Shown here: piece after piece, positions 16,086-49,497 of the stretch
How the letters are laid out: every line of letters starts with the position of its first letter
How positions within the stretch are numbered: the first letter of the stretch is position 1
DNA from: Pseudomonadota bacterium
GTDB taxonomy: Bacteria; Myxococcota_A; UBA9042
Assembly: GCA_005792545.1 (NCBI GenBank)
Contig: SXRM01000249.1
Coordinates: 1 to 64,000, forward strand
Reading direction: 5' to 3'
Length of the DNA: 64,000 nt
Notes under the pieces: generated by a model
The model's database searches: none
Told to the model about the DNA's origin: nothing
The model's input: only the letters and a program-made list of their open reading frames with translations
Position numbers and translations under genes: made by a program

Positions 16086-16356
16086 GACCCCTCCCGCTGG
16101 GCGTTCGGCCGGGGGAATGCCGGTCGCCCACGTCACGTACGGCGCGCAGCATAGCGGGGGCGGGGGCTGGGCTCAATTGGACATTTGCGGTGGACGATTT
16201 ACGCGCTGCGGTTGGTGTGACTGCGCAAAAAGAACTAGCTGTTCGCTGGCAGCGACGACCTACACGGTGCTCGCCACCTGCATCGTCGTCGGGGGCGATC
16301 CGCGTGGGAGTATCTGCACGCCATGCTGCCCGTGCTGGCAGCAGGCGCGGACTGGT

Positions 16357-26500: not shown

Positions 26501-29500
26501 GGGCTTGCACGGACAGTTGGCGACTGGCGCACTGGACTTGCACAGGCCAGCGCTGCACAGGTCGTTAGCAGTGCAGGCATCGCCGTCGTCACAGGCTTTA
26601 TCCGTGCCCAGCGCCACATGCTGGCAGCCAAGCTTGGGCGTACACACGTCGGCAGTACAGGCATTGGCGTCGTCGCACGACACCAACGCAGGCTTAAGTT
26701 TGCGCAGGCGGTGGTCGTCATTGCCGCTGACCAGCACCTCGCCACCGGGTAGCGGCAGCACGCCGGTGGGTTCAGCAAACTGTGCGGCCGCACCGACACC
26801 ATCTACCACCCCCGAGGTCGCGCCGCCTGCGACCGTGTAGCTGCGGCCGCCCGGCACCAACGCCCGGATTCGCTGCGCGCCAGCCCCGGTTTCGGTTACC
26901 CAAACCACGCCGGCCGCATCGACGCCGAGGCCATTGGGTTCGTTCAGACGGACACCATAAGGCAGGTTGCCGTCTTGCGAACCGATGCTGTCCAGCCCGG
27001 CAAAAGTGGTGACGACGCCGGCTGGCGACAGCTTGCGCACGGTGTGGTTGTTGCCGTCGGCGATGTACAGGTTGCCGGCGGCGTCGCGGCCCAGGCCGCG
27101 CGGACCGAAAAAGCGGGCGCTGGCGGCCGCGCCATCCACATAGCCGTAGGTCACCGCCCCCGCGACGGTCGTGACTACGCCGGTCGGCGACACCGCTCGG
27201 ATCATGTGGTTGCTTTCGTCGGACACCCACAGGTTGCCGGCCGCATCGCTGACCACGTCGTTCGGGCTCTTGAAGCGCGCCGCCTTGCCGATGCCATCGA
27301 CCGAACCTTGCGCGTTGGTGCCGGCAAGCGTCGACACGCTGCCATCGGGTGCGATCTTGCGGATGCAATGGTTGTTGCGGTCGGCGACGTACACGTTGCC
27401 GGCGCCGTCGGCGGCGATGCCGGTCGGGTAGCTGAAGCGGGCAGCGGTCGGCGGACCGTCCTGGTAGCCGTTGCCGTACCACGCCGATCCGGCGTACAGC
27501 GTCACGATGCCCTGAGCAGAGATTTTGCGGACACAGTGGTTGCCGGTCTCAACGACGTACACGTTGCCCTGCGGGTCGCGGACACTGCGCGCCGGCTTGT
27601 AGTAGCGGGCGTCTTGCAGCGGCCCGTCTTGCTTGCCGATGTCTTTACCCGACCAGGTGGTGACCTGCACCGCTGGCTGACACTGGCCAGCCGTGCACTG
27701 CAGCGCCAGCGCGCACCCCTGGCCATCGTTGCAAGCCTTGCCGTCCGGCTCGGATTTCCACGTGCAGGCGCCGCTTTGGGCGTCGCAGCTGTCCGCCGTG
27801 CACGGGTTGCCGTCGTTGCAATGCGTTGAAGGTGCGGTTGCGCACTGGCCCGTAGCGGGGTCGCAGCTGTCGGTCGTGCACGGGTTGCCATCGTCGCAGC
27901 TGTGGCCGCGGAGCTCCAGCGCCCGCAAGCGCTTGTTGCCGGTGTCTGCGACCAGCATGCGGCCAAGGCCCGCGCTTGCTACACCCATGGGGCCCTGCAA
28001 TAGGGCGCTGGCGGCTTTGCCGTCGTTGGGCAGGGTCGCGCTGCAGGCAGCCACACCACAGGTAGGGCCAACCTTGGCCACGCACGCCGGCGTCCAGGTG
28101 CTGGCACAGCAAGCGGGATCCACAGCGCACACCTTGGCGACGCAGGGGTCGCAGGCTGCGGCGAGCGGCGGCCCGTTGATGCAGGCGTGATGCGCGCAAG
28201 CGGTCGTATTGGCGACCGTCCAGACCTTGCCGTCCAGCCCGAGCGCGCGCAAGCGACTGTTGCCACGGTCGGCGATCAGCAGCAGGCCGCTGGGGTCCAC
28301 AGCTACATCGTGCGGATCGTTAAACTTGGCCGTCGCCACCGCGCCATCCACCCACCCGGACGAACCGCCGCCGGCCACCGTCGTCACCACGGCCGCCGCG
28401 GTGATGCGGCGAATGGCGTGGTTGCCCGAATCGGCCACGAAAAGGTCGCCATTCTTGGCCCACGCCAGTGCGCTCAGGCTGGAGAAGGCTGCGTTGGTGC
28501 CCGTGCCATCTTTCTTGGCCGCCGTGCTGCCGGCAAACGTCGACACCGTGCCGTCCTTGGCAATCTTGCGGATGCGGTGGTTGTTGGTGTCGGCCACGTA
28601 AATCGTGCCGTCCTTGGCCACAGCGACGCCGCGCGGCGAATTGAACTTGGCCACAGTCGCGGCGCCGTCGACCCAGCCGCTGCCGCCCTGTCCGGCGACG
28701 AGCGTTACCGTGCCATCTGGCGTCACGCGCTTGATCTGATGGTTGCCCATGTCGGCGACGACCACGTCCTGACCGTCGATGGCCAGATGGTACGGTTGGC
28801 TGAAGCGGGCGCCGCTGCCTTTGCCCAGGTTGCTGCCGTACACGCTGGGCATGCCGGCGACCGTCACCACGACGCCGTCTGGACCCAAGCGGCGCACCAC
28901 ATGCAGCGCGGCCTCGCTGAACCAAATGTTGCCGGCGGCGTCTTGCGCCACGCCCGTTGGCCCGGTCAACGCCGCAGCGATGGCCGGCCCGTCGCTCATG
29001 CCGCCTGGCACTGCCGGCCCGCCGGTTAGGGTGTGCAAGTACGCGACGGGCGCGGTGGGTGCGCACACTTCGCTCTGGCAAGTGGTGTCCTTGGTGCAGC
29101 CATCGCCGTCGTCGCAGGTGGCGCCGTCGGCCTTGCCGATGCACACCGTGGCCGCGGCGCCGCAGGCCAGCGATTTCGGACCCGGCGCGCACTTGCCGGC
29201 CTTGCAGCCGTCGCCCTGGGTGCAGGCGTCGCCGTCGCTGCATGCCGCGCCATCGTAGTTGGCGGGGTGCTGGCAGCCGGCCGCCGAGCAAACGTCCTGA
29301 GTGCAGCTGTCGTTGTCGTTGCAGGCGGCGTCATCGCTGCCGTGGGTGCAGCCGATGCCAAACTCGCAGGCGTCGGCCGTGCAGGCCACTTTGTCGTCGC
29401 ACGGCCCGGCCGACGGGGTGTTGACGCAGCCCTTGACCGGGTCACAGCTCTCGATGGTGCAGGCGACGCCGTCGTCGCAGATCTTGGCGGCGTCGGCGTT

Positions 29501-31672
29501 AGCGCTGCTGCAGGCGCCGGTCGCCTTGTCGCAGCTGTCTAGCGTGCACGGCTTGCCATCGCCACAGTCTTTGGGCACGCCGGCCCCGCACGCGCCGGCT
29601 TTGCAGGTCTCGCCGCTGGTACAAGCGTTGCCGTCGTTGCACAGTTCGCTGTTCTTGAACGACACGCATCCCGCGAGCTTATTGCACACCTCGGTCGTGC
29701 ACGCGTTTTTGTCGTCGCAGTCCACGGCCTTGCCGGCGCTGCAGCTACCGCCTTTGCAGCCGTCGTCGCTGGTGCAGGCGTCGCCATCGGTGCAGGTGGC
29801 GGCATTGGCAGCGTTGACGCAGCCAGCCTTGGGGTTGCAGCTGTCGTCCGTGCACGGATTGCCGTCGTCGCAGGGCTTGGTGATGTCCAGCGTCGGCAGC
29901 GCGCACACGCCCTGTTTGCAGATCTCGCCCACCGTGCACGGCGTGCCGTCGTTGCACGGTTCGTCGTTGTGCAGGTAGGCCACCTGGCACTTGCCGGTCT
30001 TGGGCACGCAGCTGTTTTTCTGGCAGAAGTTGTCGTCCACGCTCGGACACGACACCACGGTGGCCGGGTTGACCTGGCAGACATAGGGCGCCTTGGTCTT
30101 ATTGCAGACCAGCGTGCCGTTGCACAGGTCGCCGTCCTCCTGGGTGGCGCAGTCGGCGTCGCTGTTGCATTTGCAGGTGTTGGCGCCCGCTTTGCACAGG
30201 CCTGTTGCACAGACATCGCCCTCGGTGCACACGTTGCCATCGTCGCAGGGTTTGCCGGCGTTGACCGCGGCCATGGCGCACTGTGCGGTCTTGGGGTCGC
30301 ACAAGTTGTGCGAACACGGCGTGTTGAACGCCCCCGAGCAGCCGACCACAGTCTTGGGGTTGATGGCGCAGCTGTTTTTGACTTTGTCGCAGTAGAGCGT
30401 GCCGTTGCACAGGTCGCCGTCCTCAAAGGGGCCGCAGTCGGCGTCTTCGTTGCAGATTCAGGTGTTGGTGGCGGCGGCGCAGGCCCCGGCTTTGCAGGTG
30501 TCGCCAGCCGTGCACTTGCTGCCGTCGGCCTCGCAGGTGGCGCCGTCGGGTAGCGGCACGGGCGCGCACTTGCCGGTCGTCGGCACGCAGGTGTTGACCT
30601 CGCAGGGCCCGTCGCCCGCCGTTTGGCACACCACTACGGTCGCTGGATTCGGTACACAGGTGCCGGTGGCTTTGTTGCAAAACGGCACGCCATTGCACAG
30701 GTCGCCGTCGTCTTTGCTCGCGCACTCGGCGTCGTTCTGGCAGGTGCAGGTGTTGGCGCTGGCTGTGCAATTGCCTTTCTCGCAGGCGTCGCCGGCCGTG
30801 CACGGGTTGCCATCGTTGCACGCCGTCTTGTCCGCCACCGCGACCATTGCGCACTTGCCGGTCTTACTGTCGCAGGTGTTCTTGCTGCATGCGGTGTTAT
30901 CCACCACTGGACAGACCACAACCGTAACCGGGTTCACCTGGCAGATCTTGCTGGCTTTGTTGCAGAACCACGAACCGGCGCACAAATCGGCGCCATTGAA
31001 CTTGGCGCAGTCGGCGTTGCTGGTGCAGCAGGTGTTTTCGCCGCCTTTGCAGGTGCCGGCCGCGCAGACGTCGCCTTGGGTGCACGGCAGGGTGTCCTCG
31101 CACGGGGTGCCGTCGGACTTGGGTGCCTGGTCGCACTTGCCGGTGTTGGCGTTGCAGGCAACCGTCAGGCACTGGTTGGCCGGCGCCTGGCACTTGACCA
31201 CCGTGATGGGGTTGACCTTGCACACGAATGGCGCCGTGGCCTTGTCGCAGTACAGCGTGCCGTTGCACAGGTCGCCGTCCTCCTTGGCAACGCAGTCGTC
31301 ATTGGTTTTGCAGGCACAGGTGTTTGGGCCGCTGGAGCACAGGCCTGCCTTGCACGCATCGGCCGTACACGGGTCGCCATCGTCGCACGGCGTGCCGTCG
31401 GGCTTGTCGGTGCACGGCCCAATGGGCGGGTCTATGCCATCGACCGTTTCGGGTGCGTCGCCTGGGCCCAGATCGGGCGTGTCTGGCGCTTCGTCTGGCG
31501 GGTTGTCGGGGGCCGTTGCCGCATCGGTCGCAGAGTCCGCGGCAGCCGCAACATCGGCGGCGTTGGCCGTTTCTGCCACAGCGCTATCGGCGGTCGCGAC
31601 CGGTGCCGGGTCTTCGCCGCACGAAAGCGCCAGCAGTGCACAAGACGCAAGCCAATAGTGGTGCAGTCGCAT
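23525..31672 (-). CDS. Giant Cys-rich / NHL beta-propeller / fibrinogen-like lipoprotein with internal TGA
   Basis: One reading frame of 2715 codons split in the track because codon 405 is TGA (30458-30460). The start MRLHHYWLASCALLALSC at 31672 is a lipoprotein signal. An Ala/Asp/Pro spacer is followed by Cys-rich modules (EDGDLCNG, NPCTADxC types) to about residue 870. Many NHL repeats (VADxGNHxIRK, TLAGxxxxGxxDG) then run to about 2530, interrupted by three Cys-rich blocks. The C-terminus resembles a fibrinogen-like/SUEL-type fold (QTTDGGGWTRVD ... CGFGYGC). The TGA replaces a cysteine conserved in neighbouring repeats (NTC-x-C), and downstream sequence is intact for over 2300 codons. Beta-propellers plus a lectin-like end suggest surface glycan or matrix binding; this is inferred. 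Confidence 0.8.
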
Positions 31673-36830: not shown

Positions 36831-36881
36831 AGGAGGCCCTGATGTGTAAGCCCCCCCCCCCGGTTGACGTTTTCTGAAATG
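36831..36881 (+). promoter_or_regulatory. Strong SD, ATG, C11 tract and leader before RHS gene
   Basis: aggagg (36831-36836) lies five bases before ATG 36842. That ATG reads through eleven C (36851-36861) and, as sequenced, ends at TGA 36875-36877 as an 11-residue leader, one base before the RHS ATG at 36879. With ten or thirteen C the same ATG is in frame with the lipoprotein signal. This is the arrangement of a slipped-strand phase-variable gene; reinitiation after the leader is another possibility. Confidence 0.6.
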
Positions 36882-39800
36882 TCCAGAATCGCTTGCTTGC
36901 TCGCGATTGCGCTTCTCGCCGCGTGCACTGTCGATGTCGCGGTGGCCCCGGACCGGGATAGTGGTGAGAGCGATCTCAAGGTGGCCGACTCTGGGTTCGC
37001 GACGAGATCGACAGCGCTGACCAATCCGGGCATCGAGCTCAAGTCGCAAGATCTCGCGACGATTGAGGTGGGCACGCAATCCGCTGTGGACGTGCCTGTC
37101 ATTTTTGAAGTCGCCGTTGCGAACCCTAGCCCGATAACCGACGAGATTCGCTGCCGCCGAGACGGTCTGATCGAGACGGTGTACGGGGGCCTGCAAAGCG
37201 GCCAATTCACGCATACGTTTACTCAAGTGCCACGCGGCATGCATGACCTGGCGTGTTCGCTGTTTATTGGCGCCGACCTGGTCCAACGAGCGACGCGCCG
37301 CGTATTTGTTTCCGGCGACTGCACCGGCGGCGACTGCGACGATGGCAACCCCTGCACCAACGACCCGTGCATCAATGGCAAATGCGTCTACGAGGCACTG
37401 CCAAACTGCTGCCTTTCCGACGATGCTTGTCCGAAGTCCCACACCTGCGTTCAGTTGACAGCGGGACCCAAGGTCTGCTCGCCTTGTGCGAGCGATAGCG
37501 TCTGCGACGACGGTGCCAACGCCGGCGGTACCGACTGTGCCCAAGACAAATGCAACCTCGACGCAAGTTTAGGCCCCTACGCGCTTTGCGAACATCCGAC
37601 CAACTGCAATACGGAGAGGCCACTACGCGGTTGCACTACCTTCACGGGCAACCTGGGCGGGTGGATAGGCCCCGCGGCGTTTTCGCACCAAGTCGCTGAC
37701 CTTACAGGCTCTGCATCGCCAGGATCGGTGCGCTTCCAATCGGCGTCGTCCGACAATGGGCCGTTTTGCCTGCGCTCACCCGAGTTTGTGGCACCGCCAG
37801 CCGGGCCGACAACGTGGACCGTGCAGTTCTGGCACAAGCTGGTGTCAGGGTCGCCAGTGACGTTATCGGTGACGCCGGTGTACCCGAACGCCGGCGGGTG
37901 GGCACAATCGTCTGCACCGCCCTGGACCAAACAAATCCCCGCCCCCGCCGGGCAGCCGGTGCTGGAGTCCATTGTTCCGGTGGACCCATTGGGCGGCGGC
38001 ACAATCAAGCTCGACATCTGCGTCACTGTGGCTGGTGCCGCGGTTTGGGACCTGGACGACGTCTGCATCGCTGCCGGCACTGCCCCGACGCTCGTTTGCA
38101 AGCCGATTGTGCACATGACCGCAGGCGGCAAGCGGACCGACAAAGTGTACGATTTGCATGCCCTGGGTGGCTCTGCCGGCTATCCATTGCAATTCAGTAA
38201 GCTCGCAGGGCCATCGTGGCTGGGATTCTACCCGGCGCTTTACGATGGCCACCTTGGGCAATGGCTGGCTAGCCCGGATCTGCGGTCGATGGCCAAGGAA
38301 CAGGCTGGCTACCACGCAGTTACGATCCGAGCGAGCGATACTGTACTGCAAGCGCAGTGCACGACGAGCGCGAATATCCGGCATCCGAGCGGGCTACTGA
38401 TCTGGGCGCCCGGGGCGCCGGACCATGCCTTTCAGCCTTTGCGCGATGCGGCGAAGGCGTTGGGTATGAGCTGGCTGGATACGCCGGCGCTTGCCAATGT
38501 CGGGGACCTATCGGCATTCCACACGATTATCGGCGTGTTGGGGATTGGCGTTGCTCCGCACTTCCCGTCTGCGCAGGAGGCTGAACGGCTGATTGCGCAT
38601 TGGCAGTCAGGTCGGCTGGCCCTGGCTGGCAGCGCGTACTGGTCGGCGAATGACGGTGGCTGGTCGGCCAACCAAAAGGCAATGCGCCAAGCGTTTGGCA
38701 CAACAGGCTATTCTGCCCCAGGCCAGCCCAACCTCGAACCCTCCGCTACTGGCTTCGCACTGCACCTCGACACCAACCAAGTCCCCGCAGCGCCACAACC
38801 CTATGCCATCAAGGAGGACGAGAACCTCTGGGCCAACAACGACCACCTGACCGTAACCAATGCCGCCACGAGCTGCCTGCCGGTGTTGCGCGTCCAGCCG
38901 TTCACCGGCCCGGCCTTCTGGACCGAAATTGCGTGCGAGCACCAGGGCGGCAACCGCACGATCGCGATGTCCGCACCCTTCGGCGCGTTCAAGGACGCGC
39001 TGGGCCACGCCTCGACCGTCGAGCATGCCAAGCGGATCCTGCAGTTCCTGTCTAACGGCTTTCCGCCGTGCGCGAGCAGTTCGGACTGCAACGACAACGA
39101 TGCATGCACAACAAACGCTTGCGTCGACGGCAAATGCGACTTTGCCGCGCCGGTCAACTGCAATGACGCCAACGATTGCACCGTGGACAGTTGCTCGAAA
39201 GACACCGGGTGCGCGCACTATGCTGACCCCAACGCGACATGCAACGACACCACGACCTGTACCGGCGACGAACACTGCCAGGCCGGCGTGTGCATTACCG
39301 GCGGCGTGATGGCGTGTGACGACACCGACGGCAACCCTTGCACCTCGCCCTCCTGCATTGCCTGGGTCGGTTGCGTCAACTTCAACAATGCCAACGCCTG
39401 CAACGACCAAAACCCGTGCACGGAAAACGACCCGTGCCAGGGCGGCGTCTGCGCTGGGGCGAACCAGACGGTGGCCGCGACCGGGTACTGCGCGCCCGAC
39501 CCGATCGGCCCCCTGCCGCCGGACCCGACGGCACTTGCGCCTCCGTTGCCCACCACCACCGTCACCTCGTTTTCGGCAGCCGTCGCCTTCCTGTGGTCCG
39601 GTGCCAATGCCATCCAGAAGCCGCTGCCGAATGCGGCGCCGCTGAACTTCGACCCCAGAGTCATCGCAGTCAGCCGCGGCAAGGTCATGCAGCGGAGTGG
39701 CAATGGCGTTGCGCCCCTGCCCAAGGCCAAAGTGTGGGTACCGGCGCACCCCGAATGGGGCTACGTGCTGACGCGCATCGATGGCAGCTTCGACTTCGTG

Positions 39801-42800
39801 GCCGAGCAGGGCGCCGGTATCGTGGTCGAGTTCGTCAAGCCGGGGTTCTTCCCCGTTCATCGCAAGATCGACGTGCCCAGGCGCGATTACGTGGTGCTTG
39901 CTGAAGTTGTGCTGGTGCAGCCGGATCCGGTATCGAAAGTGTTGCAATTTCCGACGCCGCCCCTAGCGGTTGGTGCACTGCTGAGCTCTGTTGTCCAGGG
40001 CCCGCCGGGCAGCACCAAGGTCGACGACGGCCCACGCCAGACCATGCTGCTCGTGCCGCCCGAGACGACGGCGGTAGTCCATGGCCCAGGTGGCGCGCTG
40101 ACCTCGCCGCCACAACTGACCTTGCGGGTGACTGAGTACACGGTCGGGCCAAATGGCCCGGCGGCAATGCCCGCAAATCTGCCGCCGGCGTCCGGCTATA
40201 CGTGGTGTGGCGAGTTCAGCGCGGATGAGGTGATGGCGGCTGGCCCCAAAGCGTGGGTCGAGTTCGGCAAGCCCCTGTCGGTGTACCTCGACAACTTTCT
40301 GGATCTGCCCGTCGGTCGGACCGTGCCGCTCGGCTACTACGACCGCACCGATGCCGTGTGGAAGCAGCCGCGCCCAAAGACGGACGGCAATGGCAATGCG
40401 CTCGCCAAGACTGTCGGCAACGCGCTGGTTATCGCCGCCGGCATTTACCAAGGTGAACTCAAAGTCTGGCTGACGCCGCCAACCCAGGGCCTGGCCACGC
40501 CTGGCTTGCCCAATGCGCTCCTTGACGCGATGGGCATGGCCGCTTGGGAACGTGACGCGCTCAAACAGCGACTCCAGATGTTGCCCGGTGGCGCGCCTGC
40601 TCAGCCCAAGTCGTTCTGGCGCTTTCAGATTGACCACATGACACCTTGGGATGCCAACCTGGGCTATTCCTACGTCGCCGAAGGTCCTACGGAAGACCCG
40701 CCAGGTATTTCGGGGCCGCCAGACGACACCGAAACGCCGACGTGCAAGAAAGGTTCGATCATCGAATGTGAAACGCAAGGCCTGGGCGAGGTCTTTCCCG
40801 TCGTTGGGACGCCGCTCGCGCTTCGCTACCAGAGTCGCCGCACGCCCGGTGGCCGGCAGCGGTTGGTGGAGGTGCCAGCGCCGACCGCGACCACGCCAGC
40901 GAAGGCGACCTCAACGGTCAACGTGGCCGGCCAGACCGTGCCACAGACCGGTACGGGCGGCTCGGGCGGCAAAGTGTTCCAGTGGGATGGCAAGGACGCG
41001 TTCGGACGCACGGTCAACGGTTACCAGCTCGCTGCGGCAACGACGACCTATGCCTACAATAACAAGCGGATTACTGTCCCCATTTCCGAGGGTTCGATTG
41101 GTTTCTCGATCACGCTCCAGGACATCGCCATTTCTTTGGGGTGCACATGCGCGTCCGATGCGAGCGCCACGCTCACCTGCCACTACCCGGACGGCTCGCT
41201 ATGCATGGCGATGGGCGGCACCGAGCCGACCTCGACCTTGGTCAAGTTCCCGCCGCCGCTATTCGGCACCCAGGCCGCGACGACGAAGGGCTTGGCGACC
41301 GTTGAAGTACCTGTGCTCGCCTTTAGCCCGAATCTCGCTCAGCGGACGAACACGCGCACGGTTCACAAGCGCATCGGCAACGTCGCCCCTGATGGCGACC
41401 TCGGCGGGCTGAGCCTGGGCGTGCACCATGTGTACGACCCTGGGTCACAAACCTTGGTGCTGGGCAGTGGCAAGGTGCGCAACCTGCCGACAAACAAGCT
41501 CACCGTGTCGTCGCACGCCGGGGCCGGGACCACGGCGTTGTCGACCGTGCTTGCGGAGCCGCCCGTGCCCATGGCGGGCATTGAACTGACCAACAAGATT
41601 GACGCGCTGGTGGTGACACCCCATGGTTACACCTACTTCGCCTCGGAAGGCAACCTCTATGAACTGAACCCAGCGGGTAACGTGCGCCGGGCCTGTCAGC
41701 AAGCAGGCGGCTTCGCAGTCAGGTCCCTCGCTCTTGCTGGCCCGATTACGCTGCTGGTCGGTATGCACAACAATCTGAACGGTGTGGTCCACAAGACACA
41801 GGTTGGCGCGGCATCCTGCGGCGGTGCGCCGGCCTACGGCAACGCAAGCGCCACCAGTGCCGGTAATTGGGGGCCTGCGAAAGACGCCAAGCTTCTGCCG
41901 TCCGCGCTGGCGGTCGCCCCAGACGGCGCAGTCTTCATCGCAGAGGGTGCTGAGGACCCCGACATGCGCAAGGTTCGCCGGATCGATCCCAGCGGTGTGA
42001 TTGCGCCGTATTTGGGCTCGGGCCTCGACCCGGATCTTTCGACTTCGTGTGAAGACATCGACCAGCCGGCGACCCAAGTTTGCATCGGCCGGCCCAGTGC
42101 ATTGGCGGTGGATGGCGGCGGCAACCTGTTCGTTGGTACCGACACCGGGCGGCTCTTTTGGGTCAGCGGCGCAGATGGCCGCGTCCGTCGAATCCACGTC
42201 GAATTGCCTGCCACGCAAGCGGGCACAACCCTGCTCGGCCTGTATGCTGGGGCTACCAATGTCATCGGCTACTGCCAGTTCGGCGGCAATGGCCAAGGCA
42301 CTGTCAAGCTTGCCATGACCGGCCAGCCCGTTTCGGGCGTCTGGCGCCTGCTTGGCGCGGACCAGACGCTCGCAGCTGACAGCGGCGCCGCGCAAGTAGC
42401 AAACCTGCTCGGCGGCTCGGCCGGGGACCTTGCCATTTCCAACTGCACCGCCGTGGCCCACACCCCACAAGGCGATTGGTATGCCGCTGCGCTTGTCGAC
42501 TACGTTGCGCAATCACGGCGGATCCTGCGCGTCACGCCCCAAGGCCAGGCTTGGACCGGGGGCAACCTCTACCTGCCGTCCGAGGATGGTAGCGAGGCCT
42601 ACGAATTCACTGCCGACGGCCGGCACGTAAGCACGAAAGACGCAACCACCGGCGCGACCCTGTGGGCGTTTCAATACGACCCGCCATTCTCTGGCAAGTT
42701 GGTTTCCGTCACCGACGCCGACGGCATCCTCACCACCATCACGCGAGACGCCGCCGGCAAATCCGTTGCATTGTCGGGCCCGCCGCAGCAAGGCGCGATC

Positions 42801-45800
42801 ACCAAGATCGCGCTCAACGACAGCGGTCTTGCCAGCAAGTTCATCAATCCGGCCGGCGAGACGACGACACTGGTCTATGAGACAGCGCAAGCCAAGCATG
42901 GGCTGCTGAGCAAGCTCATCCAACCGAGCGGCGACATCAGTACCTTTGCATGGGACGACCGCGGTCGGCTGCAGAAGGACACCAATGCGGCCGGCCAGTA
43001 CAAGCAGTTGGCTACGAACGAGACGGTCGCCGAAAACAAGGCCGTGACGACCGTGACGACCAACCTCGGCCGCGTTACCACCTATGACACCAAGCACAAC
43101 CCAGACGGCAGCAGCGAGCGCAAGACGGTCACGCCGGCCGGGCTGCTGACGCTCCGGCGCGAGTTCATCACGACCGCGTGGGTCATGGCCGATGGCACCG
43201 TCAAGCAAACAGCCGAAGCCGGCAGCCAGCGCGCCAACTACTTCCGCCGGGATCCTGATGGCACGGCGACCTGGCTGCGCAATGGCCCGGATACCCAGTG
43301 GGGCGCCGGGGGGCAGCAGCCTGTTGAGGCGTTTGTCTCAGTGCCTGCAATGCCCGCGGGCGAGACCTATGGGCCGGCGTTGTTGGCCCGCCAGTCGCGC
43401 GTTGAGGAGATCACCAAGCAAGCCGGTGGCCAGCCCGTGCCTCTGGTCAACCGGTTGGTGACCGACTCGATGGACGTGACGGACCTGGGCGTGCTCGGGT
43501 CAGTATCTTTCAAGCAAAAGGCCGAAATTGTCGCGGGGACGTGGCAGGTAACCTCAACATCTGCCCAGAACCGCGTGGTGACCACCTATTTCGACGCCAG
43601 CTACCGCCCGGAGCGGACGGTTGTCTCCGGCTTGCCAGAAACCAAGACCGCCTACAACACCGATGGCACCGTGGCGACGGTGACCACCACATCCGCGCTT
43701 GACCAGAACCAGGTGCGGACGGTGTCCTACACCTATGCCGGCGGCCGTGTGTCCAAGGTGACAGCGACGGGCACCATCTCAGGCACCACCAACACGACCA
43801 CCGCTAGCGTGGAAATCGGCACCGATGCCGCGTGGCGCGTATCGAGCCAAAAATTCACTGACGGCCCGACGATCACGTTGGCGCGCGCCGCCGCCGGCCG
43901 CCTTGCCGGCGTTTCGATGCCCAAGTCAGCGGTGGAACTCGAGCCGCCGGTGTACAGCTTCACGTATGGCAAGGCGGACCAACCGAAAAACGAAGCCTTG
44001 CCGGCGGTGGCGCCCAAGCAGGCGTGGCTGACACAGTTCGAGTACGACAACGACGGCAATCTTGCGAAGGCGACGCGGCCGGATGGCAAACAGGTCAAGT
44101 TCGAGCGCAATGGCCTGGCGCAAGTCGAGAATATTGAAGCGCCCAACGACGCCGAGCCCAACGACCCCGTTGTAACCACGGTTGCCCTCAAACCGGAGTA
44201 CGACGCGGCGGGACGGGTCAAGAAAATCGCGCACAGCAAGTACGGTAGCTTGGGCTTCGCCTGGCGCGGCGTCCTCAACGGCCGTGAAACCTGGCTGGCG
44301 CCGGATGGCAACGACCCGCCCGGCAGTAACGGCCCAGCCGCCAATTGGAGCGTGCTGCGCGACTACGATTCCGCGCTGCGACTGCGCCGGGTTGGGGTGC
44401 TCAAGCCTGACGTGGCCGGCCTGGCCAACTACCATTGGGTGCACGCGTTCCTCGATGGCGATGGCTTGCTGACGGGCTTGCAACTCAGGAGCGGCAACCT
44501 GGAGAGCCCGTACCCAGTCACAGTGGCCATGGGCACGTATGGTCGCGACGCTGCCAATGGCCTGCTGACGGGTCGGTTGCTCGGCGCGGTGGCGGAGGCT
44601 CGCAGCTATGACGGGTTTGCCGATCCTTTGACCTACCTCGTTGAGATGCCAGCGACCGCGCAGAGCCCGGCAACATTGCTGTACCGCGAGGACTACACCA
44701 AGCGCGATGGGCTGGGCCGCCTGATGGAACGAAAAATCAAGTACGGTGGCGTCGACGACACTTGGACCTATACCTACGACGGGGCCCGAGGCTGGCTCAA
44801 GACTGCGCACAAGAACGGTGTTCTGGTTGGCGAATGGAAGTACGACGTCCGCGGCAACCGCACGTCGTCGATGGAGAATGGCGTCACGACGACGGCAGCG
44901 TTTGACGTGCAGGACAAGCAACTGACCGCGGGCGACCGCACGTACACCTACGGCGACGACCTTGGGCGGGTGACCGGCGAGTCGGAACCGGGCGTCGAGT
45001 CGCGCAGCTACACTTGGGATGCTGGCGGGCGGTTGGTCAAAGCCGTCCTCGTCAAGGACGGCGCGACTACGACCGTCGACTACGTGCTCGACGCTGCCGG
45101 TCGGCGTATTGGTAGGAAGCTCAACGGCGTGGTACAGGCCGGCTGGCTCTACGACGGCGCGCTGCGGCCGACGGCGCAGCTCGATGCCAACGGCAAGTTG
45201 GTGTTGCGGTTTGCCTATGGATCGCTGGGGCATTCGCCCGATGCCGCGGTCAAGTTCAACACTGAGACCGGTGCGGTCGCGGGCGTTTACTGGTTTGTGC
45301 ATGACCAGGTCGGTAGTGTGGTGGCTGTGGTGGACACGGCGACAGGGGGCGCTGTCGAGCGGTGCAGCTACCAGCCGTGGGGCAAGCGAGATTGCGAACC
45401 GCTGCCGCCGCCGCCGTTCACGCATCCGTTCGGCTTCGCTGGTGGGCTGCACGACCTTGACACCGGGCTGGTTCGGTTTGGGGCGCGCGAGTACGACCCG
45501 CGGATCGGGCGGTGGCTGGCGCGGGATCCGATTGGGTTGGCGGGGGGGTGGAACCCGGCAGCGTACGTGGGCAATGACCCGATTGGCGCAACCGACCCAA
45601 GCGGACTGCGGCCGGATTTTGACATGGGCCCAATTGACCAGTGCCGCGCACTAGATTCCGGCTGTCGCGAGGATTTCCTAAAGGTCGCCGAAGTTTGGGA
45701 AGCTATAGCAACAGTTCTGTTTTCAGGCCCACGGTGTGCCGGCCGTAGCCCTGGCAAGGATGGCTACGCCTTCTCGGGCCATCCTCGCGGTCCCTTGAAG

Positions 45801-46046
45801 GGCAGTACGGCGGGCCGCGGGCGGTCGAACTCGGGCAAAGGGGGTGGACCGGCTGGCCGGCCACCAGAGAAACTTACTGACTGGGAAGTCGACCAGTTGA
45901 CGAAAGCCGGCCACCATCCCCATTCCTTGAAACCCAATTCCAAATACGATTTGTACAAGGACGGCGACGGCAATATTTCGGTGCACCGGAAGGGCGGCAG
46001 CGGTGTCGGCGATCCAACTAACCTCAACATTAATGACTTCAAATGA
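36879..46046 (+). CDS. Teneurin-like RHS/YD-repeat polymorphic toxin lipoprotein
   Basis: 3055 aa from ATG 36879 (MSRIACLLAIALLAAC lipobox). In order: Cys-rich modules near 150-230 and 725-860; a transthyretin/carboxypeptidase-regulatory-like Ig domain near 935-1018 (LPKAKVWVP ... DGSFDF); a plug-like region near 1310 (LRYQSRRTPGGRQ); NHL-type propeller sequence near 1570-1870; YD repeats to about 2870 (YTYDGARGWL, YDxxGNR types); and the RHS core end ARDPIGLAGG...DPSGL. The last ~147 residues are a swapped-in toxin ending SKYDLYKDGDG...VHRKGG...DPTNLNIND, resembling polymorphic toxin type 33 nucleases. The stop overlaps the immunity gene by ATGA. The domain order matches eukaryotic teneurins closely. 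Confidence 0.85.
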   Translation: MSRIACLLAIALLAACTVDVAVAPDRDSGESDLKVADSGFATRSTALTNPGIELKSQDLATIEVGTQSAVDVPVIFEVAVANPSPITDEIRCRRDGLIETVYGGLQSGQFTHTFTQVPRGMHDLACSLFIGADLVQRATRRVFVSGDCTGGDCDDGNPCTNDPCINGKCVYEALPNCCLSDDACPKSHTCVQLTAGPKVCSPCASDSVCDDGANAGGTDCAQDKCNLDASLGPYALCEHPTNCNTERPLRGCTTFTGNLGGWIGPAAFSHQVADLTGSASPGSVRFQSASSDNGPFCLRSPEFVAPPAGPTTWTVQFWHKLVSGSPVTLSVTPVYPNAGGWAQSSAPPWTKQIPAPAGQPVLESIVPVDPLGGGTIKLDICVTVAGAAVWDLDDVCIAAGTAPTLVCKPIVHMTAGGKRTDKVYDLHALGGSAGYPLQFSKLAGPSWLGFYPALYDGHLGQWLASPDLRSMAKEQAGYHAVTIRASDTVLQAQCTTSANIRHPSGLLIWAPGAPDHAFQPLRDAAKALGMSWLDTPALANVGDLSAFHTIIGVLGIGVAPHFPSAQEAERLIAHWQSGRLALAGSAYWSANDGGWSANQKAMRQAFGTTGYSAPGQPNLEPSATGFALHLDTNQVPAAPQPYAIKEDENLWANNDHLTVTNAATSCLPVLRVQPFTGPAFWTEIACEHQGGNRTIAMSAPFGAFKDALGHASTVEHAKRILQFLSNGFPPCASSSDCNDNDACTTNACVDGKCDFAAPVNCNDANDCTVDSCSKDTGCAHYADPNATCNDTTTCTGDEHCQAGVCITGGVMACDDTDGNPCTSPSCIAWVGCVNFNNANACNDQNPCTENDPCQGGVCAGANQTVAATGYCAPDPIGPLPPDPTALAPPLPTTTVTSFSAAVAFLWSGANAIQKPLPNAAPLNFDPRVIAVSRGKVMQRSGNGVAPLPKAKVWVPAHPEWGYVLTRIDGSFDFVAEQGAGIVVEFVKPGFFPVHRKIDVPRRDYVVLAEVVLVQPDPVSKVLQFPTPPLAVGALLSSVVQGPPGSTKVDDGPRQTMLLVPPETTAVVHGPGGALTSPPQLTLRVTEYTVGPNGPAAMPANLPPASGYTWCGEFSADEVMAAGPKAWVEFGKPLSVYLDNFLDLPVGRTVPLGYYDRTDAVWKQPRPKTDGNGNALAKTVGNALVIAAGIYQGELKVWLTPPTQGLATPGLPNALLDAMGMAAWERDALKQRLQMLPGGAPAQPKSFWRFQIDHMTPWDANLGYSYVAEGPTEDPPGISGPPDDTETPTCKKGSIIECETQGLGEVFPVVGTPLALRYQSRRTPGGRQRLVEVPAPTATTPAKATSTVNVAGQTVPQTGTGGSGGKVFQWDGKDAFGRTVNGYQLAAATTTYAYNNKRITVPISEGSIGFSITLQDIAISLGCTCASDASATLTCHYPDGSLCMAMGGTEPTSTLVKFPPPLFGTQAATTKGLATVEVPVLAFSPNLAQRTNTRTVHKRIGNVAPDGDLGGLSLGVHHVYDPGSQTLVLGSGKVRNLPTNKLTVSSHAGAGTTALSTVLAEPPVPMAGIELTNKIDALVVTPHGYTYFASEGNLYELNPAGNVRRACQQAGGFAVRSLALAGPITLLVGMHNNLNGVVHKTQVGAASCGGAPAYGNASATSAGNWGPAKDAKLLPSALAVAPDGAVFIAEGAEDPDMRKVRRIDPSGVIAPYLGSGLDPDLSTSCEDIDQPATQVCIGRPSALAVDGGGNLFVGTDTGRLFWVSGADGRVRRIHVELPATQAGTTLLGLYAGATNVIGYCQFGGNGQGTVKLAMTGQPVSGVWRLLGADQTLAADSGAAQVANLLGGSAGDLAISNCTAVAHTPQGDWYAAALVDYVAQSRRILRVTPQGQAWTGGNLYLPSEDGSEAYEFTADGRHVSTKDATTGATLWAFQYDPPFSGKLVSVTDADGILTTITRDAAGKSVALSGPPQQGAITKIALNDSGLASKFINPAGETTTLVYETAQAKHGLLSKLIQPSGDISTFAWDDRGRLQKDTNAAGQYKQLATNETVAENKAVTTVTTNLGRVTTYDTKHNPDGSSERKTVTPAGLLTLRREFITTAWVMADGTVKQTAEAGSQRANYFRRDPDGTATWLRNGPDTQWGAGGQQPVEAFVSVPAMPAGETYGPALLARQSRVEEITKQAGGQPVPLVNRLVTDSMDVTDLGVLGSVSFKQKAEIVAGTWQVTSTSAQNRVVTTYFDASYRPERTVVSGLPETKTAYNTDGTVATVTTTSALDQNQVRTVSYTYAGGRVSKVTATGTISGTTNTTTASVEIGTDAAWRVSSQKFTDGPTITLARAAAGRLAGVSMPKSAVELEPPVYSFTYGKADQPKNEALPAVAPKQAWLTQFEYDNDGNLAKATRPDGKQVKFERNGLAQVENIEAPNDAEPNDPVVTTVALKPEYDAAGRVKKIAHSKYGSLGFAWRGVLNGRETWLAPDGNDPPGSNGPAANWSVLRDYDSALRLRRVGVLKPDVAGLANYHWVHAFLDGDGLLTGLQLRSGNLESPYPVTVAMGTYGRDAANGLLTGRLLGAVAEARSYDGFADPLTYLVEMPATAQSPATLLYREDYTKRDGLGRLMERKIKYGGVDDTWTYTYDGARGWLKTAHKNGVLVGEWKYDVRGNRTSSMENGVTTTAAFDVQDKQLTAGDRTYTYGDDLGRVTGESEPGVESRSYTWDAGGRLVKAVLVKDGATTTVDYVLDAAGRRIGRKLNGVVQAGWLYDGALRPTAQLDANGKLVLRFAYGSLGHSPDAAVKFNTETGAVAGVYWFVHDQVGSVVAVVDTATGGAVERCSYQPWGKRDCEPLPPPPFTHPFGFAGGLHDLDTGLVRFGAREYDPRIGRWLARDPIGLAGGWNPAAYVGNDPIGATDPSGLRPDFDMGPIDQCRALDSGCREDFLKVAEVWEAIATVLFSGPRCAGRSPGKDGYAFSGHPRGPLKGSTAGRGRSNSGKGGGPAGRPPEKLTDWEVDQLTKAGHHPHSLKPNSKYDLYKDGDGNISVHRKGGSGVGDPTNLNINDFK

Positions 46047-46420
46047 AAACATTCGTTTTGCTTACGATTGGCCCACTTCAGGGCACAGCACCGCGTGCCG
46101 ACGACATTGATGCGCTGGCCAAGAGCGCTGGCGTCGACATTGAAGACCGCACGTGGTTTGGGATGCCGTATTGGCGGTTCTCAAGCCACAGGTCCGGAAT
46201 CGCGCTGGCGTTGCATGTCGCCGAGATCGTGCCAACTCTGGTGCGTCTGACCCAGCTCGCCCGCCGAGGCGCCGTCGCAGTACCTGCCCAGTTGGGTCTG
46301 GTCGTTTACGGCAGCGACAACTGGGACATCTGCTTTTCTGGAAAGCAACTGCGTCAGTTTGCGCGCCTGGGTATAGACTTGGAAGTACAGCACTACTATT
46401 CAAATATGAATGCCGAGTGA
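46043..46420 (+). CDS. Probable immunity protein for the RHS toxin
   Basis: 125 aa, acidic-neutral, without a signal peptide, starting MKTFVLLTIGPLQG. Its ATG overlaps the RHS stop (ATGA), the typical coupling of toxin and immunity genes. No family was recognised. The role is inferred from position: it would bind the type-33-like toxin tip and protect the producer's cytoplasm. Confidence 0.7.
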   Translation: MKTFVLLTIGPLQGTAPRADDIDALAKSAGVDIEDRTWFGMPYWRFSSHRSGIALALHVAEIVPTLVRLTQLARRGAVAVPAQLGLVVYGSDNWDICFSGKQLRQFARLGIDLEVQHYYSNMNAE

Positions 46421-46486: not shown

Positions 46487-46762
46487 GCAACGAGCACGCT
46501 GGACTATTGGTCATTTCGGCACTGGTTCGGCCCGGCAGTCAGATTTTGGGGCCTGGCCGCCATTGGCGACGGCTAGGGGTTTGCAGTCCGTTCTGCGACT
46601 TCCACGAACGCCTGGCTTGCCGGGCCGAGTTGGCTTGATGGGGCATCGCACTTCCGGTTTCGTGTGGAAACGCAGTATTGTGTCGCATTGGTCGGCTTGG
46701 GGGCCGTCGTTGGGCTGGCGCTGATGTTGGTCGTCCGCATCGGGTTGAGGTGGATAAGATGA
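46487..46762 (+). pseudogene. Possible broken small membrane-protein gene
   Basis: One frame reads TLDYWSFRHWFGPAVRFWGLAAIGDG, meets TAG at 46574-46576, then continues in the same frame to a clear hydrophobic helix (VALVGLGAVVGLALMLVV) and basic end RIGLRWIR before TGA 46760-46762. A TTG near 46487 could start it. It may be a decayed orphan immunity or membrane gene behind the RHS locus. Chance hydrophobicity cannot be excluded. Confidence 0.3.
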
Positions 46763-46842
46763 CCGGCAAAGGGCACTTGGCGATCGGCGACCGCATGGCT
46801 GCATTCGGAAACGGCCGTTGCGAACCCCCGGCTGCACCCGCC

Positions 46843-49497
46843 GTGCTATCTTGCCGGTTACTCTGCGTTGCCGCTGTCCACTTTGGTTGCAGCGAAGACG
46901 CCGAAAGCGGCAAAGCCACCGCCCAGCGTGCGGATATCGCTGTCGTCGAAGCCGACGCGGCAGCAGACGCGCCCACCGACGCGCCCCAACCCCCGGCCAC
47001 AGCAAAACCCTGCCCCCCGACCCCCTGCCCCGACCAAAACCCCTGCACCCACGACTACCCCCGCCCCGACTGCACCTGCGCCCACGACCCGCTGCCTTTG
47101 GCTTGCAACGACAACAACGCCTGCACCACCGCCGACTTCTGCGGCCCCGACGCCACCTGCGCAGGCTTGCCGCTACCCGCCACCGCCTGCGCCGACGCCA
47201 ACCCCTGCACGCTCGACGCCTGCGACCCCAAGCTCGGCTGCGTCCACTCGCCTGCCGACACGACCACGCCTTGCGACGACGGCAACCCGTGCACCACCCC
47301 CGACGGCTGCAAGGCCGGGGCATGCTCGCCGGGACCCAAGCTGCCGTGTGACTGCACCACCACCGCCGACTGTGCCTCCAAAGAGGACGGCAACAAGTGC
47401 AACGGCACGCTGTACTGCGACACCACCGCGCCGCCGTTTCAGTGCAAAGTGCTTCCCGGCTCCGTCGTTGTCTGCCCGGCCGGCTTCGACACCCCGTGCA
47501 CGCAGCTCAAGTGCCTCGACAGCACCGGGCAGTGTGCGCCGCTTGGCGTCAACGAAGGCGGGCCGTGCAGCGACGGCAACGCGTGCAGCGTAGGCGACCA
47601 CTGCTCCGTTGGCGCTTGCCTGCCGACCGGCGTCACCACCTGTGACGACGGCAATCCCTGCACCGCCGACGGCTGTGGGCTGGCGTTTGGCTGCAACCAC
47701 AAGCCGGTGGTCGACGGAACAGCTTGCGAAGCAGACGGCAGTGTGTGCACGCAGGCCGATGCGTGCGCCACCGGGAGCTGCGCCGCCGGCAAGCCGCTGC
47801 TGTGCAATGACGGCAACCAGTGCACCTTCGACGACTGCTCGCCGGCGGTCGGCTGCGTCGCCATCTTCACCACAGCCAGTTGCAATGACGGTAATGCGTG
47901 CACCGGCGGCGATGAGTGCTACAAGGGCCTCTGCTTCGGCAAAGAGGTCAATTGCGACGACGGCAACGCGTGCACCGTGGACCTGTGCGCGGCTGGCAGC
48001 GGGTGCGACCATGTTATCGCGCCGTTCGCTTGCTCGGACGGCAACGCATGCACGGTCGGCGATGCTTGCAAGGGCGGGGTGTGCACGCCGGGGCCGGCCA
48101 CCGTGACGTGCAATGACAACAGCGTCTGCACGGTTGACAGCTGCGTGCCCGCGAAGGGCTGCAACTTTGCGCCGTTGCCCGAAGACACGACGTGTACCGA
48201 TGATGTGGCGTGTACAAGCGGCGATGCTTGCAAGGCGGGCAAGTGTGTTGGGGCGGCGGCGGTTTGGAAAGTGGAGTTTGGTCTGGCAAATAGCGACATT
48301 CCGCGCAAACTGCTCGTCTTGCCTGACGGATACGTGGTCGTGGGCTACTCAAAGTCGTTTTCGACGGTCAGTCGCGCCTGGTTCGTGCGCATTGACACGC
48401 ACGGCAACCTCCTATGGCAAAAGTCGGCTGGTGGCAAAACGAACATAGAGGTTTATTCGGCTACCGGCGTAGGCGGCGGTCTGCTAGTTGTGGCGACTGT
48501 CCAGGGCGACAGCGCCACGGCCTCGAAGACCTGGTTGAGCAAGGTCACCGGCAATGGGGACGTCGCGTGGACGGAACTCGGCGTGCCTTGCTACGGACAC
48601 ACAGCGGGTGAGAGCATTATTGTCCCAGCGCCCGCGGGTTTTGCCTGCATATCGGCGCTGTATGGCATGGGCATGGCGCGCCTTGACCAGCAGGCCAAGC
48701 TGCTGTGGACCGGCAATCTCGGCCAGCCTGCGGATCAGACAAGGACAATAACGGCAATGCCCGGGGGCTTTGTGCTTGCGGGCCAGGTGCCGATCGAACA
48801 AAAAGGGGGGCAACAGCTTCGTTTTGTTGCTACCGATGACGTTGGCAAGCAGATTTGGCAGTTGACCGCGCCCGTGCAAGGCTCGCCCAGTGTCATCGAT
48901 TCAGACAGCGGCCCACTCGGGCCAGTCTTTGTTGGCAGCGCGACTTGGATTGAGACTATAAACATCAAGAAGTTTGCCCGCGCGCTGCAGGTTGATGCCG
49001 GCGGCAAGCTTGTTTGGGATGCGCTGTATTCGTTTGCACCCAGTTGGGCAGAAGCAGTGGGTGTCGCGGCCGGTCCAGAAGGCCTCGCCGTCGCCGGTGT
49101 CGTTATCGCTTCAACGCCTCCCTTCAAGGCGACACCCATGCTGTTGAGGACGGATGCCGCCGGCTTGGAGCGCTGGCGGGCATTGTTCGAGATCAATTCC
49201 GACGGCAATACAGTTGATGTTGCGTTTGTCGATGGCGGCATCACCGTCCTCGGCGGCTATGATCCCCCAGGCGACGACAAGATTGACGGCTGGCTCGCCC
49301 ATACCGACGCATTCGGCAACTATTCGTGCGCCAACTCCGGCCCTTGCTACGCCATGAAACTCGCCGACTGCGACGACAACAACCCTTGCACCTACGACCA
49401 GTGCGACGCCGCGCACAATGGGTGTTGGAATCCTAAGCAGCCCGACAGCACGCCCTGCGGCGGGGGCAAGGTCTGCAAGGCGGGGGTATGCCAGTAA
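46843..49497 (+). CDS. Cys-rich lipoprotein with beta-propeller-like domain
   Basis: About 884 aa. GTG 46843 gives a compact lipoprotein signal (MLSCRLLCVAAVHFGC); ATG 46795 or 46759 would add a less typical N-terminus. A Pro/Ala spacer leads into about 430 residues of Cys-rich modules (CDDGNPCTTPDGC, SCVPAKGCNF). Residues about 470-830 form repeated blade-like units (GYVVVGYSKS, GNLLWQKS, GGKLVWDALYS, LLRTDAAGLERW) of a PQQ/delta-60-type propeller. A final Cys module ends CGGGKVCKAGVCQ. It is surface-displayed by inference. Confidence 0.8.
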   Translation: MLSCRLLCVAAVHFGCSEDAESGKATAQRADIAVVEADAAADAPTDAPQPPATAKPCPPTPCPDQNPCTHDYPRPDCTCAHDPLPLACNDNNACTTADFCGPDATCAGLPLPATACADANPCTLDACDPKLGCVHSPADTTTPCDDGNPCTTPDGCKAGACSPGPKLPCDCTTTADCASKEDGNKCNGTLYCDTTAPPFQCKVLPGSVVVCPAGFDTPCTQLKCLDSTGQCAPLGVNEGGPCSDGNACSVGDHCSVGACLPTGVTTCDDGNPCTADGCGLAFGCNHKPVVDGTACEADGSVCTQADACATGSCAAGKPLLCNDGNQCTFDDCSPAVGCVAIFTTASCNDGNACTGGDECYKGLCFGKEVNCDDGNACTVDLCAAGSGCDHVIAPFACSDGNACTVGDACKGGVCTPGPATVTCNDNSVCTVDSCVPAKGCNFAPLPEDTTCTDDVACTSGDACKAGKCVGAAAVWKVEFGLANSDIPRKLLVLPDGYVVVGYSKSFSTVSRAWFVRIDTHGNLLWQKSAGGKTNIEVYSATGVGGGLLVVATVQGDSATASKTWLSKVTGNGDVAWTELGVPCYGHTAGESIIVPAPAGFACISALYGMGMARLDQQAKLLWTGNLGQPADQTRTITAMPGGFVLAGQVPIEQKGGQQLRFVATDDVGKQIWQLTAPVQGSPSVIDSDSGPLGPVFVGSATWIETINIKKFARALQVDAGGKLVWDALYSFAPSWAEAVGVAAGPEGLAVAGVVIASTPPFKATPMLLRTDAAGLERWRALFEINSDGNTVDVAFVDGGITVLGGYDPPGDDKIDGWLAHTDAFGNYSCANSGPCYAMKLADCDDNNPCTYDQCDAAHNGCWNPKQPDSTPCGGGKVCKAGVCQ

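What the first reader, a model, noticed from the sequence alone, without database searches (positions are those of the whole stretch)
36879..46420. Bacterial lipoprotein with teneurin-like domain order and a nuclease-like toxin tip
The predicted order is Cys-rich modules, transthyretin-like Ig, plug region, NHL propeller, YD shell, RHS core motif, then a C-terminal toxin. This is the extracellular order of teneurins, here on a lipobox-anchored bacterial protein with a type-33-like toxin and an ATGA-overlapping immunity gene. It may illuminate the bacterial source of teneurins and a cell-contact toxin of this lineage.
Basis: partly seen in the sequence, partly recalled or inferred. Interest (0 to 1): 0.7.

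Follow-up and report, generated by a model that had tools for sequence, protein, structure and literature searches.

The report
Teneurin-like lipoprotein toxin with immunity gene
This gene encodes a giant surface lipoprotein of a myxobacterium relative that, like the published bacterial cousins of our neuronal teneurins, appears to carry a swappable RNase-type toxin in a protein shell next to its antidote gene; the family is already known, but a slippery run of 11 cytosines at its start hints that its production may be switched on and off at random.

Summary
The best solved relative is the Bacillus teneurin-like protein (9ifo, E 1e-124); animal teneurins follow at about 1e-32. All self-cleavage residues are kept. 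It is a new member of the teneurin-like protein (TLP) polymorphic toxins characterised in 2026 (PMC13018210). "Bacterial source of teneurins" is not supported. New here: (i) a paralogue in the same genome, 62% identical up to the RHS core, has an unrelated HNH tip and a DUF4265 gene; (ii) relatives in the genus carry other tip/immunity pairs and a duplicated shell segment, as in Rhs systems; (iii) tip and immunity gene have lower GC; (iv) both TLP genes start behind an identical leader (SD, ATG TGT AAG, poly-C) with 11 or 12 C, the only C/G runs above 10 inside any contig of the 7-Mb assembly. That suggests phase variation, untested. No T6SS sheath gene was found in six genus genomes. The structure model failed (pLDDT 31); immunity is inferred from position and analogy.

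The parts
36831..36836 (+). Shine-Dalgarno-like AGGAGG before the upstream leader ATG
   Evidence: sequence; leader 25-mer identical in the paralogue and found nowhere else in 21 family genomes
36842..36877 (+). leader ORF ATG TGT AAG (C)n ... TGA, which ends one base before the TLP ATG at 11 C
   Evidence: frame table for 8-14 C
36851..36861 (+). poly-C tract, 11 C (12 C in the paralogue); candidate slippage switch
   Evidence: only homopolymer of 8 or more in the window; genome-wide runs of 10 or more at six places
36879..46046 (+). teneurin-like protein (TLP) gene, 3055 aa
36879..36926 (+). type II signal peptide with lipobox LAAC (Cys16; Thr +2, Val +7)
   Evidence: sequence; rule for outer-membrane lipoproteins as cited in PMC5562445; no SignalP run
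37314..37598 (+). Cys-rich module I (about residues 146-240)
   Evidence: sequence
39087..39593 (+). Cys-rich module II (about residues 737-905), Dicty_CTDC-like
   Evidence: Pfam below cut-off at 760-781
39648..39914 (+). teneurin TTR-like domain (924-1012)
   Evidence: PF25020
39924..40598 (+). TIP domain (about 1016-1240)
   Evidence: alignment to 9ifo and to TLP profiles
40599..41513 (+). FN-plug (about 1241-1545), with cleavage site G1292|S1293
   Evidence: invariant Ser
41514..42572 (+). NHL propeller region (about 1546-1898), divergent
42573..45458 (+). YD shell (about 1899-2860)
   Evidence: PF25023
45369..45608 (+). RHS-associated core (2831-2910) with R2870, D2883, D2906
   Evidence: TIGR03696; invariant residues
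45542..45548 (+). G7 run at the shell/tip junction, in frame here; copies at the same site in G001:C212 and L009 are out of frame
45609..46046 (+). toxin tip, residues 2911-3055 (Ntox33 at 45867-46034) and stop
   Evidence: PF15533; GC 58.4% against 64.3% in the body
46043..46420 (+). candidate immunity gene, 125 aa, ATGA overlap
46678..49497 (+). Cys-rich (Dicty_CTDC) protein ORF; homologue also lies downstream of the paralogous TLP; relation to the toxin unknown

Best explanation
It is a teneurin-like protein (TLP), a class of polymorphic toxin. Shown by sequence: Sec/SPII lipoprotein signal, Cys-rich stalk, TTR-TIP-plug-NHL-YD shell, both self-cleavage sites, a tip that differs completely between two otherwise similar paralogues, and a downstream gene overlapping the stop. 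Inferred: the protein sits in the outer membrane, the shell closes around the tip, the RHS aspartyl protease frees the tip after L2910 and the plug cuts at G1292|S1293, and on contact the 15-kDa Ntox33 domain (a predicted RNase) acts in a neighbouring bacterium while the 125-aa protein protects the producer and its kin. Tip and immunity gene are exchanged as a cassette through homologous shell DNA. Delivery is probably not by T6SS; outer-membrane exchange or another contact route is possible but untested.
For: Domain and PDB matches; invariant catalytic and cleavage residues in 18 TLPs; paralogue identical in plan with an HNH tip and a DUF4265 gene; HNH plus DUF4265 pair behind a different shell in G001; GC step at tip and immunity gene; duplicated shell segment behind a tip/immunity pair in G001:C86; published TLP tips are toxic and neutralised by the downstream gene (PMC13018210); no T6SS sheath gene in six genus genomes.
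Against: No experiment; structure model failed; the 125-aa protein has no recognised family, with only a faint DUF4279-like signal; the first position of the published Ntox33 motif is H here, not D or N; the genome is a 78%-complete MAG.
Confidence: 0.85

Rival explanations
1. It is mainly an adhesion or recognition protein, as teneurins are in animals; the tip is secondary or inactive.
For: Cys-rich stalk and NHL propeller are contact-type modules; a second Cys-rich protein is encoded next door in both loci.
Against: The tip is the part that is replaced as a unit with its downstream gene, Ntox33 still scores well over its cut-off, and all protease residues are kept.
Confidence: 0.1
2. It is an Rhs effector fired by a type VI secretion system.
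For: Same shell and core as T6SS Rhs effectors (PDB matches 7q97, 8h8a, 8uy4).
Against: Lipoprotein signal; N-terminal TTR/TIP/plug instead of a T6SS adaptor; no VipB in six genus genomes, although the E. coli control rang.
Confidence: 0.02
3. The protein belongs to the lineage that gave rise to animal teneurins.
For: TTR-plug-NHL-YD order shared with teneurins.
Against: Closer to a Bacillus TLP than to teneurins; TIP domain present; different tip; published tree favours Paenibacillaceae. I built no tree that includes animal sequences.
Confidence: 0.02
4. The poly-C leader is incidental: the TLP is simply translated from the ATG at 36879.
For: MSRIACLLAIALLAAC is a complete signal peptide from that ATG in both paralogues; other TLP loci examined show no comparable tract, though not all reach the true start.
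Against: AGGAGG stands before the upstream ATG and nothing similar before 36879; C/G runs of 10 or more are about three times rarer in the assembly than a first-order model expects, yet both paralogues keep one, of different length, with flanks about 18% diverged.
Confidence: 0.6

Closest known systems
Bacterial teneurin-like proteins (TLPs), e.g. Bacillus inaquosorum BiTLP (9ifo, 9pt5; PMC13018210)
   Same: TTR-TIP-plug-NHL-YD shell-RHS core, plug cut at G|S, aspartyl self-cleavage, short variable tip, downstream immunity gene; SPII signals are reported for Myxococcota members
   Different: Ntox33 tip and Cys-rich stalk instead of Ig domains; poly-C leader; only remote sequence similarity in the propeller
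Animal teneurins
   Same: TTR, plug, NHL, YD shell
   Different: no intracellular or transmembrane part, no ABD or Tox-GHH, extra TIP, lipid anchor, active self-cleavage motifs
Rhs and CDI polymorphic toxins with orphan cassettes (PMC3150448, PMC2935791)
   Same: sharp break after the core motif, exchange of tip with immunity gene, displaced shell-end fragments
   Different: lipoprotein TLP scaffold; no T6SS found
SitA lipoprotein toxins of myxobacteria (PMC5562445)
   Same: outer-membrane-type lipobox, polymorphic C-terminal toxin, downstream immunity gene
   Different: SitA has no described YD shell; dependence on TraA not testable here
Ntox33 (PF15533; Zhang et al. 2012, PMC3482391)
   Same: terminal 56 residues match; DxxxD and HxxK kept
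   Different: first motif position is H; here on a TLP, and the only Ntox33 in 377 sampled genomes of the phylum

Membership tests
Bacterial TLP | FN-plug, NHL and YD shell adjacent and in order in one frame | tested here: met
   (homology; the authors' own HMMs were not available)
Bacterial TLP | TTR domain before the plug | tested here: met
   PF25020
Bacterial TLP | TIP domain between TTR and plug (96% of members) | tested here: met
Bacterial TLP | RHS-core Asp pair with Arg, and conserved plug Ser | tested here: met
   R2870, D2883, D2906, S1293 invariant
Bacterial TLP | short variable C-terminal domain of about 15 kDa | tested here: met
   145 aa, 15.4 kDa; differs from the paralogue
Bacterial TLP | gene immediately downstream acting as immunity gene | tested here: inconclusive
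   position met (ATGA); neutralisation not testable
Bacterial TLP | barrel structure holding the tip | tested here: inconclusive
   AlphaFold of residues 889-2000 failed, pLDDT 31
Animal teneurin | ABD and Tox-GHH C-terminus | tested here: not met
   tip is Ntox33
T6SS Rhs effector | T6SS encoded in the genome | tested here: not met
   no VipB in six genus genomes; assembly incomplete
SitA / outer-membrane exchange toxin | outer-membrane lipobox (no Lys +2, no Ala +7) | tested here: met
   CTVDVAV; rule
SitA / outer-membrane exchange toxin | transfer that depends on TraA/TraB | not testable with these tools
   no TraA model or sequence at hand
Ntox33 | profile match over the curated cut-off | tested here: met
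   42.8 and 48.0 bits against 28.4
Ntox33 | motifs [DN]xHxxK and DxxxD | tested here: inconclusive
   HPHSLK (first position H) and DLYKD
DUF4279 immunity family (for the 125-aa protein) | profile match | tested here: inconclusive
   no Pfam hit; hhalign score 22.5 against a maximum of 20.9 in 100 shuffles
Phase-variable (contingency) locus | long homopolymer where a length change alters the reading frame | tested here: met
   differs between the paralogues (11 and 12 C)
Phase-variable (contingency) locus | length variation within a population with a switch in expression | not testable with these tools
   no reads, no expression data

The most novel reading that the evidence does not exclude
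The TLP toxins of this species are phase-variable: slippage of a poly-C tract between a strong start site and the signal peptide moves translation among fused (10 or 13 C), coupled (11 C, stop one base before the ATG) and early-stop (12 C) states, so that each of the two TLPs is made by a random subset of cells.
Probability: 0.35. Interest if true: 0.55.

Novelty: new member of a known kind. Interest (0 to 1): 0.38.

Why it matters
It adds a pair of TLPs in one genome whose scaffolds match and whose toxin/immunity cassettes differ, a natural experiment for the polymorphic-toxin reading of bacterial teneurins. If the poly-C leader is a real switch, it would show that production of such a surface toxin is randomised among cells, which bears on how these proteins act in cell-to-cell conflict or recognition; I found no report of this for TLPs.

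Tried and rejected
AlphaFold of the 125-aa protein alone gave pLDDT 53 and Foldseek found nothing at E <= 0.001. No relative of tip or 125-aa protein in viral contigs or PDB, none of the tip in phages, none of the 125-aa protein in plasmids; four plasmid records hold Ntox33, of which I read only the Deinococcus one. Weak matches of the 125-aa protein elsewhere in the phylum were judged chance; the best lies in an unrelated reading frame. Other poly-C runs of 10 or more in the genus do not stand in a similar SD-ATG setting. The G6-G7 run at the shell/tip junction is too short for a claim. The promoter scan found nothing upstream.

Full report
What is there. The ORF 36879-46046 (+) encodes 3055 aa without a stop and begins with a lipoprotein signal (MSRIACLLAIALLAAC). 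Pfam finds a teneurin TTR domain, the teneurin YD shell and a terminal Ntox33 domain; NCBIfam finds the RHS-associated core. The best PDB relative is the Bacillus inaquosorum teneurin-like protein (9ifo/9pt5, E 1e-124), far ahead of animal teneurins at about 1e-32. Segment by segment, profiles from this protein and its paralogue match the corresponding segments of 15 other TLPs of the phylum: TTR 1e-21, TIP 7e-39, plug 9e-36, NHL 3e-18, shell 4e-96, with column-shuffled controls far below. The target segments were cut from a multiple alignment, so this tests homology of the segments rather than their order; the order follows.

Self-processing. In an alignment of 18 TLPs, R2870, D2883 and D2906 (the RHS-core protease) and S1293 (the plug cut) are invariant. 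By analogy with BiTLP the tip should be freed after L2910, leaving a 145-aa, 15.4-kDa domain, the usual size of TLP tips.

Tip and immunity. The tip matches Ntox33 at 48.0 bits (cut-off 28.4) and a Deinococcus Ntox33 protein at 42% over 62 aa. The 2012 inventory gives the motifs [DN]xHxxK and DxxxD; here they read HPHSLK and DLYKD. RNase action is a prediction of that inventory as I recall its grouping, not something tested here. The next ORF starts inside the stop codon. GC falls from 64.3% in the body to 58.4% in the tip and 57.1% in the next gene, and is 64.4% in the ORF after that, as expected for an imported pair. The 125-aa protein has no recognised family; a faint DUF4279-like signal, and the DUF4279 gene that follows the Deinococcus Ntox33 gene, are suggestive only.

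A natural control in the same genome. Contig C257 carries a paralogue 62% identical to the end of the RHS core; similarity stops there, and the tip is an HNH nuclease followed by an ATGA-overlapping DUF4265 gene. In a second species of the genus (G001) an HNH tip with a DUF4265-like gene follows a different shell, so tip and downstream gene seem to travel together. The same species has, on contig C86, a shell end with an Ntox24-like tip (weak, below cut-off) and a 141-aa gene, followed by a second, 95% identical copy of a 513-base shell segment. A third (G004) has a shell-end fragment with another tip and a DUF6984 gene. A further locus (L009 = G002:C99) joins a lipobox to the last part of the shell and is frame-shifted at the shell/tip junction, with its tip in another frame. 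This is the displacement pattern known from Rhs systems (PMC2935791, PMC3150448); the main text of the 2026 TLP paper does not mention orphans.

Distribution and delivery. TTR_TEN is present in 50 of 377 genomes of the phylum. Two related records of the genus are titled Myxococcales and Deltaproteobacteria MAGs, so the organism is a myxobacterium relative; the two TLPs of this genome form a pair on a long branch, apart from the other complete TLP of the genus. No T6SS sheath protein was found in six genus genomes. By the rule cited for Myxococcus, Thr +2 and Val +7 point to the outer membrane. Delivery by outer-membrane exchange, as for SitA, is a guess I could not test.

Leader. Upstream of the TLP ATG lies AGGAGG-CCCTG-ATG-TGT-AAG followed by 11 C and then a sequence that gives three outcomes: with 10 or 13 C the upstream ATG is fused in frame to the signal peptide; with 11 C it stops at a TGA one base before the TLP ATG; with 12 C it stops earlier. 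The paralogue keeps the same leader with 12 C and the same three outcomes, although the surrounding 326 bases are 82% identical. These are the only homopolymers of 8 or more in the 64-kb window and in the sequenced part of the 29-kb contig that I read. In the whole assembly C/G runs of 10 or more occur at six places, one of them at a contig end, and the two longest internal ones are these; a first-order model based on the window expects about 18. The leader occurs nowhere else in 21 genomes of the family, and other TLP loci show no comparable tract, though not all reach the true start. Phase variation is a live hypothesis limited to this pair; tract lengths in an assembly may be off by one, and there are no reads or expression data.

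Limits. The structure model failed; shell and cargo are inferred from homology. Nothing here shows toxicity, neutralisation, localisation or switching.

Verdict. The family is published, so the finding is a new member of a known kind, and the teneurin-origin angle is not supported. The extra value lies in the matched pair with different cassettes and in the poly-C leader.

Noticed in passing
window 36831-36879; L003 2500-2555: Identical leader with poly-C (11 and 12 C) before both TLP genes; candidate phase-variation switch.
   Followed up: partly
window 23525-30349 (-): 2274-aa protein with 18 NHL repeat matches, a teneurin-type NHL match and 11 Dicty_CTDC repeats; a Cys-rich gene also lies upstream of the paralogous TLP on C257.
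   Followed up: no
window 46678-49497 (+); L003 13935-16661: Homologous Cys-rich proteins follow both TLP loci and are up to 85-89% identical in DNA, more than the TLP genes (69%), which suggests recent exchange between the loci.
   Followed up: partly
window 11313-16136 (-): 1607-aa ORF with Dicty_CTDC repeats; Cys-rich repeat proteins are common in this window.
   Followed up: no
window 19714-22383 (-): 889-aa ATPase matching PADLOC candidate defence family PDC-S06 (E 9e-275) and Pfam AAA_13.
   Followed up: no
L009 9614-11607: Lipobox fused to the last part of a TLP shell, frame-shifted at a G run at the shell/tip junction; a similar break is in G001:C212.
   Followed up: partly
L003 12319-13722 (-): IS66-type transposase ORF between the paralogue's immunity gene and the Cys-rich gene.
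   Followed up: no
L135 (G000), L139, L142, L149 (G002): Recurring motif of poly-C (10-13) followed by ATTGTTCAGATC in several places of two genomes of the genus.
   Followed up: no
L090, L096: TLP tips elsewhere in the phylum include a pretoxin HINT module and, by eye, a Fic-like motif.
   Followed up: no
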